This document shows, in pieces, positions 4,385 through 12,499 of a stretch of 64,000 nt of DNA (within the stretch, counting starts at the first letter, position 1; the number at the start of each line of letters is the position of its first letter). The notes under the pieces were generated by a model that was not told where the DNA came from, ran no database searches, and saw only the letters and a program-made list of their open reading frames with translations. The stretch covers positions 1 to 64,000 of the forward strand of contig BPKM01000009.1 in the NCBI GenBank assembly GCA_026005135.1, written 5' to 3'. This stretch comes from Leptospiraceae bacterium (lineage in GTDB: Bacteria; Spirochaetota; Leptospiria; Leptospirales; Leptonemataceae). A program made the position numbers and the translations under genes.

Positions 4385-4545
4385 TCTAAATACGACATTT
4401 TTTATTTAAGATCTAAAATCCAATATTTTTTGTTATATAGAAATGTAATCCAAATAATAGCTTTTAGAATAATAACGATATATACTTTATAACTCTTTTA
4501 TTTTAAAAATTCTTATAAATTCCGATAATCAAAATATATCCCTCT

Positions 4546-5428
4546 ATGCCAAAACATAAATTTACTCTAAAATACGACGAATTCTTTAAAATCGTAACCA
4601 AAAACTTCTTTGAACTACTAAACTGCAACGTTATCACCGAATACGAAATTCTTAAACTACCCAAAAAAGCAGATATCATTATCATTAAAAATCCAAATAC
4701 TAAAAAACTAGAATTATTTAAATATTTCAAATTATTCAACATTATATCTTTTAAATCCGAAAAAGATAAACCCTACCATAAAAGATTTTAACGACCTATT
4801 TATCTATCTTACGGGATTCTGTAATAGAGAAAAATCCGCTAACCTTAATAATACTACCATTACTCTTATAACACCAGACTTTACTAAATCATTCAAAAAT
4901 CTATTAAATAAACATGCCATTTTATTACAAAATGGTCTTTATAAATTTCATAATGATTTATTAAATATCTATTTTATCGAAATCAACCAACTTGATATTA
5001 ATGCATACGAAATAGAATATCTCTATATCTTCGCTAATCAAAATAAATTAAAAGAAGGTCTAAAAAATATAAAACTAATTCCCATTAAAGATAAAAAAAT
5101 GATTGCATTATTACAGGAAATGTATTATGTTAGATATAGTAATTTTGAAAAACAATTACCAGAGGGTATCAAAATGCCAAAAGTTTACGAAGCTGATATT
5201 ACTGATTTAGTAAAACCTCATTATGAAAAGGGTTTGCAGGAAGGTTTACAAAAAGGGAAACTTGAAGGAAAATTAGAAGGATTACAAGAAGGTGAAAAGA
5301 AAGGTGTATTAAAAGCAAAAATAGAAACAGCGAAGAAAATGAAAAAAGAAGGTTTGTCGATTGATTTAATTGTAAAAATAACTGGCTTATCTAAAAAAGA
5401 TTTAAAAAAATATAGAATAATTGAATAA
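4546..5428 (+). pseudogene. Rpn-like protein copy 1, frameshifted
   Basis: ORF 4546-4791 then 5099-5428; extra C in AAACCCTACCAT relative to AAACCTACCAT of copy 4. Confidence 0.8.
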
Positions 5429-5554
5429 TTTCTGCCCAATCTCCCTACCCATTGATTTTTAGATAGTAAATCAAATTTTATAATTTTTTCTCAAACTAAT
5501 CCTTCTTTTTCTTAACTTATCCTATAAATTCCGATAATCAAAATATATCCCTCT

Positions 5555-6413
5555 ATGCCAAAACATAAATTTACTCTAAAATACGACGAATTCTTTAAAA
5601 TCGTAACCAAAAACTTCTTTGAACTACTAAACTGCAACGTCATAACAGAATACGAAATTCTTAAACTACCCAAAAAAGCAGACATCATTATCATTAAAAA
5701 TCCAAATACTAAAAAACTAGAATTATTTAAATATTTCAAATTATTCAACATTATATCTTTTAAATCCGAAAAAGATAAACCCTACCATCAAAGATTTTAA
5801 CGACCTATTTATCTATCTTACGGGCTTCTGTAATAGAGAAAAATCCGCTAACCTTAATAACACTACCATTACTCTTATAACACCAGACTTTACTAAATCA
5901 TTCAAAAATCTATTAAATAAACATGCCATATTATTACAAGATGGTCTTTATAAATTCCATAATGATTTATTAAATATCTACTTTATCGAAATCAATCAAC
6001 TTGATATTAATGCATACGAAATAGAATATCTCTATATCTTCGCTAATCAAAATAAATTAAAAGAAGGTCTAAAAAACATTAAACTAATTCCCATTAAAGA
6101 TAAAAAAATGATTGCATTATTACATGAAATGTATTATGTTAGATATAGTAATTTCGAAAAACAATTACCAGAGGGTATTAAAATGCCAAAAGTTTACGAA
6201 GCTGATATTACGGACTTAGTTAAACCACACTACGAAAAAGGTTTACAAGAAGGATTGCAAAAAGGAAAACTGGAAGGTTTACAGGAAGGACAACTAAAAG
6301 CAAAAATAGAAACAGCAAAAAAAATGAAAAAAGAAGGTTTATCGATTGATTTAATTGTAAAAATAACTGGCTTATCTAAAAAAGATTTAAAAAAATACGG
6401 AATTACTGAATAA
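5555..6413 (+). pseudogene. Rpn-like protein copy 2, same frameshift as copy 1
   Basis: ORF 5555-5800 then 6108-6413; AAACCCTACCATCAAAG. Confidence 0.8.
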
Positions 6414-6538
6414 TTTCTGCCCAATCCCCTACCCATTGATTTTTAGATAGTAAATCAAATTTTATAATTTTTTCTCAAACTAATCCTTCTTTTTCTTAAC
6501 TTATCCTATAAATTCCGATAATCAAAATATATCCCTCT

Positions 6539-7360
6539 ATGCCAAAACATAAATTTACTCTAAAATACGACGAATTCTTTAAAATCGTAACCAAAAACTT
6601 CTTTGAACTACTAAACTGCAACGTCATAACAGAATACGAAATTCTTAAACTACCCAAAAAAGCAGACATCATTATCATTAAAAATCCTAATACTAAAAAA
6701 CTAGAATTATTTAAATATTTCAAATTATTCAACATTATATCTTTTAAATCCGAAAAAGATAAACCCTCTATCAAAGATTTTAACGACCTATTTATCTATC
6801 TTACGGGCTTCTGTAATAGAGAAAAATCCGCTAACCTTAATAACACTACCATTACTCTTATAACACCAGACTTTACTAAATCATTCAAAAATCTATTAAA
6901 TAAACATGCCATATTATTACAAGATGGTCTTTATAAATTCCATAATGATTTATTAAATATCTACTTTATCGAAATCAATCAACTTGATATTAATGCATAC
7001 GAAATAGAATATCTCTATATCTTCGCTAATCAAAATAAATTAAAAGAAGGTCTAAAAAACATTAAACTAATTCCCATTAAAGATAAAAAAATGATTGCAT
7101 TATTACAAGAAATGTATTATGTTAGATATAGTAATTTCGAAAAACAATTACCAGAGGGTATTAAAATGCCAAAAGTTTACGAAGCTGATATTACGGACTT
7201 AGTTAAACCACACTACGAAAAAGGTTTACAAGAAGGAGAATTAAAAGCAAAAATAGAAACAGCGAAGAAAATGAAAAAAGAAGGTTTGTCGATTGATTTA
7301 ATTGTAAAAATAACTGGCTTATCTAAAAAAGATTTAAAAAAATACGGAATTACTGAATAA
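6539..7360 (+). CDS. Rpn-like PD-(D/E)XK family protein copy 3
   Basis: 273 aa ORF; one tetrapeptide unit before LKAKIE. Confidence 0.8.
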   Translation: MPKHKFTLKYDEFFKIVTKNFFELLNCNVITEYEILKLPKKADIIIIKNPNTKKLELFKYFKLFNIISFKSEKDKPSIKDFNDLFIYLTGFCNREKSANLNNTTITLITPDFTKSFKNLLNKHAILLQDGLYKFHNDLLNIYFIEINQLDINAYEIEYLYIFANQNKLKEGLKNIKLIPIKDKKMIALLQEMYYVRYSNFEKQLPEGIKMPKVYEADITDLVKPHYEKGLQEGELKAKIETAKKMKKEGLSIDLIVKITGLSKKDLKKYGITE

Positions 7361-10273: not shown

Positions 10274-10398
10274 TTTCTGCCCAATCCCCTACCCATTGAT
10301 TTTTAGATAGTAAATCAAATTTTATAATTTTTTCTCAAACTAATCCTTCTTTTTCTTAACTTATCCTATAAATTCCGATAATCAAAATATATCCCTCT

Positions 10399-11220
10399 AT
10401 GCCAAAACATAAATTTACTCTAAAATACGACGAATTCTTTAAAATCGTAACCAAAAACTTCTTTGAACTACTAAACTGCAACGTCATAACAGAATACGAA
10501 ATTCTTAATCTACCCAAAAAAGCAGACATCATTATCATTAAAAATCCTAATACTAAAAAACTAGAATTATTTAAATATTTCAAATTATTCAACATTATAT
10601 CTTTTAAATCCGAAAAAGATAAACCCTCTATCAAAGATTTTAACGACCTATTTATCTATCTTACGGGATTCTGTAATAGAGAAAAATCCGCTAACTTAAA
10701 TAATACTACTATTACTCTTATTACCCCAGATTTTACTAAATCATTCAAAAATCTATTAAATAAACATGCCATATTATTACAAGATGGTCTTTATAAATTC
10801 CATAATGATTTATTAAATATCTACTTTATCGAAATCAATCAACTTGATATTAATGCATACGAAATAGAATATCTCTATATCTTCGCTAATCAAAATAAAT
10901 TAAAAGAAGGTCTAAAAAACATTAAACTAATTCCCATTAAAGATAAAAAAATGATTGCATTATTACAAGAAATGTATTATGTTAGATATAGTAATTTCGA
11001 AAAACAATTACCAGAGGGTATTAAAATGCCAAAAGTTTACGAAGCTGATATTACGGACTTAGTAAAACCACACTACGAAAAAGGTTTACAAGAAGGAGAA
11101 TTAAAAGCAAAAATAGAAACAGCAAAAAAAATGTTAAAAAAAGGATATTCCATACAGGACATTTGTGATATTACTGGCTTATCTAAAAAAGATTTAAAAA
11201 AATACGGAATTACTGAATAA
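10399..11220 (+). CDS. Rpn-like PD-(D/E)XK family protein copy 7
   Basis: 273 aa ORF; one tetrapeptide unit; alternative C-terminal segment LKKGYSIQDICDITGLS. Confidence 0.8.
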   Translation: MPKHKFTLKYDEFFKIVTKNFFELLNCNVITEYEILNLPKKADIIIIKNPNTKKLELFKYFKLFNIISFKSEKDKPSIKDFNDLFIYLTGFCNREKSANLNNTTITLITPDFTKSFKNLLNKHAILLQDGLYKFHNDLLNIYFIEINQLDINAYEIEYLYIFANQNKLKEGLKNIKLIPIKDKKMIALLQEMYYVRYSNFEKQLPEGIKMPKVYEADITDLVKPHYEKGLQEGELKAKIETAKKMLKKGYSIQDICDITGLSKKDLKKYGITE

Positions 11221-11345
11221 TTTCTGCCCAATCCCCTACCCATTGATTTTTAGATAGTAAATTAAATTTTATAATTTTTTCTCAAACTAATCCTTCTTTT
11301 TATTAACTTATTCTATAAATTCCGATAATCAAAATATATCCATCT

Positions 11346-12452
11346 ATGCCAAAACATAAATTTACTCTAAAATACGACGAATTCTTTAAAATCGTAACCA
11401 AAAACTTCTTTGAACTACTAAACTGCAACGTCATCACCGAATACGAAATTCTTAAACTACCCAAAAAAGCAGACATCATTATCATTAAAAATCCTAATAC
11501 TAAAAAATTTGAATTATTTAAATATTTTAAAATTTATAATATCATCTTTTTTAGAATTACTTTTTTGCAAAAGGCTTTATTACGTTATTTTTTTTCTTAT
11601 TGTTATATGGTTGAATTTTTGTTTTTTATGAATTTTCCTTTTTTATAATTTTTTATAATTCTTGTTTATATCAAATCCAAATTTTTATTATATATAATAT
11701 TTTATAAATATTTATAACTTTAAGGTTATATATTTTGTTTGCAAAAAAGCAGAAAATCCGAAAAAGATAAACCCTCTATCAAAGATTTTAACGACCTATT
11801 TATCTATCTTACAGGATTCTGTAATAGAGAAAAATCCGCTAACTTAAATAATACTACCATTACTCTTATAACACCAGACTTTACTAAATCATTCAAAAAT
11901 CTATTAAATAAACATGCCATATTATTACAAGATGGTCTTTATAAATTCCATAATGATTTATTAAATATCTACTTTATCGAAATCAATCAACTTGATATTA
12001 ATGCATACGAAATAGAATATCTCTATATCTTCGCTAATCTAAATAAATTAAAAGAAGGTCTAAAAAATATTAAACTAATTCCCATTAAAGATAAAAAAAT
12101 GATTGCATTATTACAAGAAATGTATTATGTTAGATATAGTAATTTCGAAAAACAATTACCAGAGGGTATCAAAATGCCAAAAGTTTACGAAGCTGATATT
12201 ACGGACTTAGTTAAACCACACTATGAAAAAGGTTTACAGGAAGGTTTACAAAAAGGAAAACTGGAAGGAAAATTAGAAGGATTACAGGAAGGAATCCAAA
12301 AAGGAAAACTGGAAGGTTTACAGGAAGGGCAACTAAAAGCAAAAATAGAAACAGCAAAAAAAATGTTAAAAAAAGGATATTCCATACAGGACATTTGTGA
12401 TATAACTGGCTTATCTAAAAAAGATTTAAAAAAATACGGAATTACTGAATAA
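11346..12452 (+). pseudogene. Rpn-like protein copy 8, interrupted by an insertion of about 0.2 kb
   Basis: ORF 11346-11648 and 11739-12452 align to the two halves of intact copies; foreign sequence between. Confidence 0.85.
11560..11749. mobile_element. Small insertion with 12-bp perfect terminal inverted repeats (MITE-like)
   Basis: CTTTTTTGCAAA at 11560 and TTTGCAAAAAAG ending at 11749; no ORF; exact boundaries and TSD not clear. Confidence 0.5.
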
Positions 12453-12499
12453 TTTCTGCTCCAATCTCCTACCCATTGATTTTTCATTTCTTTTTTTCT

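What the first reader, a model, noticed from the sequence alone, without database searches (positions are those of the whole stretch)
4512..12485. Eight-copy tandem Rpn-like array with a 4-aa repeat ladder (6-4-1-2-3-4-1-8)
The copies are near-identical through ..ITDLVKPHYEKG. They then differ by whole 12-bp/4-aa units (LQEG, LQKG, KLEG, IQKG and similar) before LKAKIETAKKM. I count 6,4,1,2,3,4,1,8 units in array order; the intact ORFs of 273, 277, 281 and 285 aa fit 1-4 units. Published work on E. coli Rpn toxins describes a helix of 4-aa repeats whose number varies between strains and which affects toxin/antitoxin dimer specificity. Here comparable variation sits inside one locus. An array of private-specificity variants, or a recombination reservoir for making new ones, is my inference.
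Basis: partly seen in the sequence, partly recalled or inferred. Interest (0 to 1): 0.82.

Follow-up and report, generated by a model that had tools for sequence, protein, structure and literature searches.

The report
Tandem Rpn-like toxin-antitoxin repeat array
A Leptospira-related spirochaete carries eight head-to-tail copies of an Rpn-like nuclease gene, each apparently with its own antitoxin encoded inside it, and the copies differ mainly in the length of the helix that in E. coli decides which toxin and antitoxin fit, so one genome appears to hold a set of differently keyed anti-phage toxin pairs.

Summary

The C-terminal domain is homologous to RpnS, the E. coli Rpn antitoxin (best PDB sequence match 7TH0). 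The N-terminal domain folds like a PD-(D/E)XK nuclease. It is a divergent lineage, matched by no Pfam Rpn model, whose motif glutamate is serine in 41/41 relatives; a CCGG-restriction-enzyme-like acid (D83) may replace it.

Every unit has a conserved internal ATG with a strong Shine-Dalgarno site 20 codons before the ladder, and none at the main start. This is the gene-within-gene plan of Rpn. The antitoxin frame is open in 8/8 units, the toxin frame in 5/8.

The genome holds 22 copies in eight clusters, ladders 1-9. The nuclease body is under purifying selection (dN/dS 0.08), while the tail diverges. At one near-identical orthologous locus only the ladder-plus-tail module differs strongly (7 versus 2 units). 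The array sits on a 16.6-kb island absent from a congener, beside restriction-like defence genes.

Rpn arrays and between-strain ladder variation were published (PMC10327210). Private specificity is untested.

The parts
4513..12484 (+). Whole array: eight head-to-tail units; boundary about 33 bp before each ATG and about 92 bp after each stop (unit 8 keeps about 32 bp of the 3' part)
4546..5428 (+). Unit 1: RpnL frame broken by +1 C after codon 76; RpnS start 5174; ladder 5234-5305 (6 units)
5555..6413 (+). Unit 2: same +1 C frameshift; RpnS start 6183; ladder 6243-6290 (4); RpnS identical to unit 6
6539..7360 (+). Unit 3: intact RpnL-like 273 aa; RpnS start 7166; ladder 7226-7237 (1)
7486..8319 (+). 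Unit 4: intact 277 aa; RpnS start 8113; ladder 8173-8196 (2)
8445..9290 (+). Unit 5: intact 281 aa; RpnS start 9072; ladder 9132-9167 (3)
9416..10273 (+). Unit 6: intact 285 aa (modelled copy); RpnS start 10043; ladder 10103-10150 (4)
10399..11220 (+). Unit 7: intact 273 aa, tail type B; RpnS start 11026; ladder 11086-11097 (1)
11346..12452 (+). Unit 8: RpnL interrupted (about 11532-11753, no other full copy in the genome); RpnS start 12174, tail type B; ladder 12234-12329 (8)
10029..10045 (+). Internal translation start in unit 6 (AGAGGG Shine-Dalgarno + ATG); equivalent ATGs at 5174, 6183, 7166, 8113, 9072, 11026, 12174
   Evidence: -6.3 kcal/mol in all eight versus +2.0 at the long start; kept in distant relatives
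4436..21043 (.). Island absent from the orthologous site of a congener (G003), in which the flanks lie about 15 bp apart
13587..15965 (-). Type IIG / DrmMI-like DNA methyltransferase of the island; the C-terminal part towards 12520 is split by stops and frameshifts
16091..19510 (-). HKD(PLD)+Snf2 helicase of anti-phage type (PADLOC C3a139; also DrmD-like)

Best explanation
The array is a tandemly amplified set of Rpn-type gene-within-gene toxin-antitoxin units on a defence island of a Leptospira-related spirochaete. Each unit encodes a long protein (RpnL-like: PD-(D/E)XK-fold nuclease domain + ladder helix + small helical tail) from a start with no Shine-Dalgarno site, and a short protein (RpnS-like, 64-92 aa: ladder helix + tail) from a strong internal start. 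RpnS, made in excess, pairs with the same helix in RpnL and holds the nuclease off; infection releases it. Ladder length, and probably tail type, sets which RpnS fits which RpnL. Units multiply by tandem duplication. Ladders grow and shrink by 12-bp units, and ladder/tail segments move between units and clusters by recombination, so the array both holds several differently keyed pairs and supplies material for new ones. Shown here: array, ladder, internal start (by sequence), homology of the C-terminal domain, purifying selection on the nuclease body, recombination, module difference between strains. Inferred: toxicity, inhibition, matching by length, phage defence (all by analogy with E. coli Rpn).
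For: 7TH0 (RpnA-S crystal structure) is the best PDB sequence match, E 1.7e-4, exactly over the tail. A true Rpn protein (P0031, TIGR01784 65 bits over a cut-off of 52, Pfam Transposase_31) carries a C-terminus 68% identical to this one. Foldseek top hits are PD-(D/E)XK nucleases (NucS/EndoMS, MspJI, Cap4, XisH; probability up to 0.99 although E about 0.02). Met210 is the only fully invariant internal Met (18/18) and its Shine-Dalgarno site persists through different codons (PEGIK, PEELK, IRRKY, LWEGI, IWRDF; -6.3 to -10.7 kcal/mol). RpnS frame open in 8/8 units; 22 genome copies with ladders 1-9. dN/dS 0.08 nuclease body, 0.01 RpnS head, 0.40 tail. PHI p 0.001-0.002. Strain comparison: flanks 98-99.8% identical, module n=7/tail B versus n=2/tail C. 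Units 2, 3 and 4 differ at 2-7 of 711 upstream and body positions yet have n=4, 1, 2. Defence neighbours and empty site. Experimental basis in E. coli.
Against: No activity data. TIGR01784 score (41.9) is under its curated cut-off (52.1) and no Pfam Rpn nuclease model hits the body. The motif acid is Ser in the whole clade, so nuclease activity is not assured. Three of eight window units and several others lack an intact long frame. Units 2 and 6 share one RpnS, so specificities are not all private. No internal promoter beyond chance was found.
Confidence: 0.65

Rival explanations
1. Passive amplification: a mobile-element-like gene family multiplied by tandem duplication, with ladders changing by neutral 12-bp slippage and copies decaying; ladder differences have no functional meaning.
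For: 3 of 8 window units and several elsewhere have a broken long frame; an IS30-type and another insertion sit in copies. Slippage of a 12-bp unit keeps the frame by itself, so intact ladders are not evidence of selection.
Against: dN/dS 0.08 in the body and 0.01 in the RpnS head among 11 intact copies; internal start kept across distant relatives through different codons; RpnS frame open in 8/8 window units.
Confidence: 0.2
2. Expression-site plus silent-cassette system: one or a few units are expressed and the rest, including toxin-dead units 1, 2 and 8, serve only as donors of ladder/tail modules.
For: Module difference between strains with near-identical flanks; mosaic sites; toxin-dead units keep intact modules.
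Against: Every unit keeps the same start, spacer and internal start; no unique expression site was seen.
Confidence: 0.12
3. Assembly artefact: near-identical units mis-joined or wrongly polished, giving false copy number, frameshifts or ladder differences.
For: A frameshift in the C1 array of this genome is absent from a 99.93% identical assembly, and nearly all differences between paired assemblies fall inside rpn units.
Against: The C1 array has the same three copies and, where readable in both, the same ladder lengths (8, 9) in that independent assembly; the window units differ by many scattered, mostly synonymous changes.
Confidence: 0.08
4. DNA-mobilising function: the nuclease drives its own tandem duplication and spread, as the name recombination-promoting nuclease suggests.
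For: Dispersed clusters with shared flanks; E. coli Rpn proteins raise RecA-independent recombination (PMC5350276); Zhong et al. suggest RpnL may help expand the repeats.
Against: No terminal inverted repeats were noticed at the unit boundaries (by eye); Zhong et al. argue against transposition.
Confidence: 0.1

Closest known systems
E. coli / C. difficile Rpn (RpnL/RpnS) toxin-antitoxin systems, COG5464 (Zhong et al. 2023, PMC10327210)
   Same: Nuclease + 4-aa ladder helix + small helical tail; internal start with Shine-Dalgarno site 8-20 residues before the ladder (20 here); tandem arrays; defence neighbourhood; ladder varies by 4-aa units
   Different: Ladder varies among units of one locus (1-8) and one genome (1-9); the nuclease body belongs to another lineage with no Pfam match and Ser in place of the motif Glu; no experiment on this clade
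TIGR01784 Rpn family recombination-promoting nuclease/putative transposase
   Same: C-terminal 50 residues match the model end (positions 223-273)
   Different: 41.9 bits for the full protein, below the 52.1 cut-off; N-terminal domain not matched
CCGG-family restriction enzymes (Cfr10I, NgoMIV, BsaWI): PD-X21-53-K-X12-13-E active site (PMC4652773)
   Same: Acid missing before the lysine, with an acid 13 residues after it in the next helix (K70-X12-D83)
   Different: No sequence homology shown; the substitution here is only inferred from conservation (39/41 acidic at 83; Lys in 9/9 E-type relatives)
Type I restriction enzymes EcoR124I/II (TAEL repeats; discussed in PMC10327210)
   Same: Number of 4-aa units changes specificity
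   Different: There DNA spacing, here protein pairing

Membership tests
Rpn (RpnL/RpnS) toxin-antitoxin | C-terminal three-helix RpnS domain | tested here: met
   7TH0 E 1.7e-4; AF2 helices 218-259, 264-271, 275-280
Rpn (RpnL/RpnS) toxin-antitoxin | Internal translation start upstream of the ladder | tested here: met
   By sequence only: ATG + Shine-Dalgarno in 8/8 units and in distant relatives
Rpn (RpnL/RpnS) toxin-antitoxin | 4-aa ladder inside the first RpnS helix | tested here: met
   the n=8 model is one 54-residue helix but of low confidence (pLDDT 68)
Rpn (RpnL/RpnS) toxin-antitoxin | Toxic nuclease neutralised by its own RpnS | not testable with these tools
   Needs expression tests
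TIGR01784 / Pfam Rpn nuclease models (PF04754, PF12784) | Score above the curated cut-off over the nuclease domain | tested here: not met
   41.9 versus 52.1 bits, C-terminus only; no Pfam nuclease hit to the window proteins
PD-(D/E)XK superfamily | Fold | tested here: met
   Top Foldseek hits are PD-(D/E)XK enzymes, but E about 0.015 and TM about 0.3, so moderate
PD-(D/E)XK superfamily | Canonical D...(D/E)xK residues | tested here: not met
   D43 and K70 invariant in the clade, but the (D/E) position is Ser in 41/41
PD-(D/E)XK superfamily, CCGG-type variant | Migrated acid K-X12-13-(D/E) | tested here: inconclusive
   Acid at 83 in 39/41 S-type, Lys in 9/9 E-type; no coordinates or activity

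The most novel reading that the evidence does not exclude
This spirochaete clade uses an Rpn-like nuclease with a rearranged, CCGG-restriction-enzyme-type active site, and its arrays work as diversity generators: ladder-plus-tail modules are exchanged between units, so that one genome continually makes new, mutually insulated toxin-antitoxin pairs that phage-borne antitoxins cannot silence together.
Probability: 0.22. Interest if true: 0.85.

Novelty: new variant of a known kind. Interest (0 to 1): 0.62.

Why it matters
Zhong et al. asked how the dodecamer repeats expand and what drives their variation. Here a natural series (n = 1, 2, 3, 4 in otherwise near-identical intact proteins, plus antitoxin-only n = 4, 6, 8) sits in one locus. 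Length-matched pairing can therefore be tested with one gene set, and the route of module change can be followed by sequencing strains. The conserved E-to-S change with a candidate replacement acid would be a distinct active-site type for Rpn-like proteins.

Tried and rejected
Phage records were searched for an RpnS like this one: no match in 50,697 records, although two phage protein families (phrog_5416, 66 aa, and phrog_12274) match the tail. Foldseek against viral models gave only weak hits, some of them PD-(D/E)XK-like. An internal promoter was sought: no excess over shuffles, and no terminators in the spacers. A donor for the swapped module of L058 was sought in the fetched G000 loci: best matches only 86-92% identical, no exact donor. 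The 222-bp insert of unit 8 was tested as a repeated element: no other full copy. The frameshifts were considered as phase variation but left open, because at least one frameshift of this genome is absent from a near-identical assembly.
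Full report
Observation. The window is G000:C9:1-64000 of a 3.4-Mb, 18-contig genome. Named relatives found by the same family (Turneriella parva, Leptospiraceae bacterium, Spirochaetales bacterium H5_SPI1, matching handles) place it in the Leptospira-related spirochaetes. Eight head-to-tail units occupy about 4513-12484. Units 3-7 have intact long frames. Units 1 and 2 share a +1 C frameshift after codon 76, also present in a lone copy on contig C3. Unit 8 is interrupted by unrelated sequence. 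The short C-terminal frame is open in all eight.

Genome-wide. Fourteen further copies of the same subfamily lie in seven clusters on contigs C1, C3 and C5, all head-to-tail where multiple, with ladders from 1 to 9 over the genome; two more distant copies lie at C5:74-76 kb. Nine of those fourteen keep the short frame. Three congeneric genomes have none.

What the protein is. The tail and the last part of the ladder helix match PDB 7TH0, the crystal structure of the E. coli antitoxin RpnA-S, and the end of TIGR01784. A metagenome protein that passes the TIGR01784 cut-off (P0031) carries a 68% identical C-terminus on a Transposase_31-type body, so the same small domain occurs on different nuclease bodies. 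The body of the window proteins hits no Pfam nuclease model. Its AlphaFold model (pLDDT 83.5) finds PD-(D/E)XK nucleases first (NucS/EndoMS, MspJI, Cap4, XisH), at modest significance.

Active site. In an alignment of 51 relatives, D43 is invariant and K70 nearly so, but the residue two before the lysine is Ser in all 41 clade members and Glu in 9 remote relatives. At position 83, thirteen residues after the lysine and in the following helix, 39 of 41 S-type proteins have Asp/Glu while all 9 E-type proteins have Lys. CCGG-family restriction enzymes have the arrangement PD-X21-53-K-X12-13-E, with the acid relocated (PMC4652773; PMC551604). The parallel is close but is inferred from conservation only.

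Internal start. In E. coli each rpn gene makes a short antitoxin from an internal start, 8-20 residues before the repeats (PMC10327210). Here Met210 is the only fully invariant internal Met (18/18). AGAGGG precedes it in every window unit (duplex -6.3 kcal/mol, stronger than 97% of internal Met codons of other window genes), whereas the long start has none (+2.0). In relatives at about 37-54% identity the amino acids before the Met differ but the Shine-Dalgarno site is stronger still (-7.4 to -10.7). The site, not the protein sequence, is conserved.

Selection and recombination. Among 11 intact copies dN/dS is 0.08 for the nuclease body, 0.01 for the first 20 codons of RpnS and 0.40 for the tail, with dN nine times higher in the tail than in the body. 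Pairs are not independent, so these are descriptive. Informative sites are strongly incompatible and the PHI test gives p about 0.002 (window) and 0.001 (all copies). Units 2, 3 and 4 differ by 2-7 of 711 positions upstream of the internal start but have ladders of 4, 1 and 2.

Strain comparison. A public MAG labelled Woesearchaeota (KatS3mg002) holds contigs up to 99.9% identical to this genome, so its label for these contigs is probably wrong. The C1 array is reproduced with all five differences inside rpn units; one of them removes a frameshift seen in G000. At the C5 locus the body is 98% and the downstream DNA 98-99.8% identical, but the ladder-plus-tail module is n=7/tail B in one and n=2/tail C in the other. 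Upstream of about 230 bp before the gene the two contigs differ, so an older rearrangement or a chimeric assembly is not excluded.

Context. In congener G003 the gene at 2609-4384 is followed shortly by sequence matching window 21044 onward, the two matched blocks lying about 15 bp apart. So 4436-21043 is an insertion carrying the array, a type IIG/DrmMI-like methyltransferase with a decayed C-terminus, an HKD+Snf2 anti-phage-type helicase and one unassigned ORF. Defence enrichment around rpn genes is published.

Mechanism and verdict. By analogy with E. coli, where adding one repeat breaks and matching repeats restore RpnS-RpnL inhibition, the ladder is read as a pairing key. Toxicity, inhibition and defence are inferred. 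Rpn arrays by tandem duplication and ladder variation between strains are already published. What is added is a ladder inside one locus, module change between near-identical strains, and a Ser-type active site. The literature search was limited to an open-access library, so a prior report of within-array variation cannot be excluded.

Noticed in passing
L058 2855-3730 and 8389-9291; G000 C5 and C1 clusters: Several other rpn clusters lie among Rhs-core fragments (TIGR03696 on L058 2855-3730), small lipoprotein-like ORFs and IS30/IS66-type transposases, as in polymorphic-toxin loci.
   Followed up: partly
window 167-810: A kinase-like gene is split into two overlapping frames; congener G003 shows a similar split (L076 942-1567), which suggests a conserved programmed frameshift or split rather than an error.
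   Followed up: no
L057, L058 (BPGB01000021.1, BPGB01000022.1): Contigs 99-99.9% identical to this spirochaete are filed under a Woesearchaeota MAG, and a similar one (L059) under Sericytochromatia: probable mis-binning.
   Followed up: partly
window 60260-61062: 183-bp unit repeated 4.4 times at 97% match.
   Followed up: no
window 12520-13587: C-terminal part of the neighbouring methyltransferase is broken by stops and frameshifts right beside the array.
   Followed up: partly
window 10043-10270 (RpnS of unit 6): Two phage protein families of unknown function (phrog_5416, 66 aa; phrog_12274) match the RpnS tail: possible phage-borne antitoxin mimics.
   Followed up: partly
G000 C5:74.3-76.3 kb: Two copies of a second subfamily (about 54% identity), one with a ladder of about eleven or more units.
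   Followed up: no
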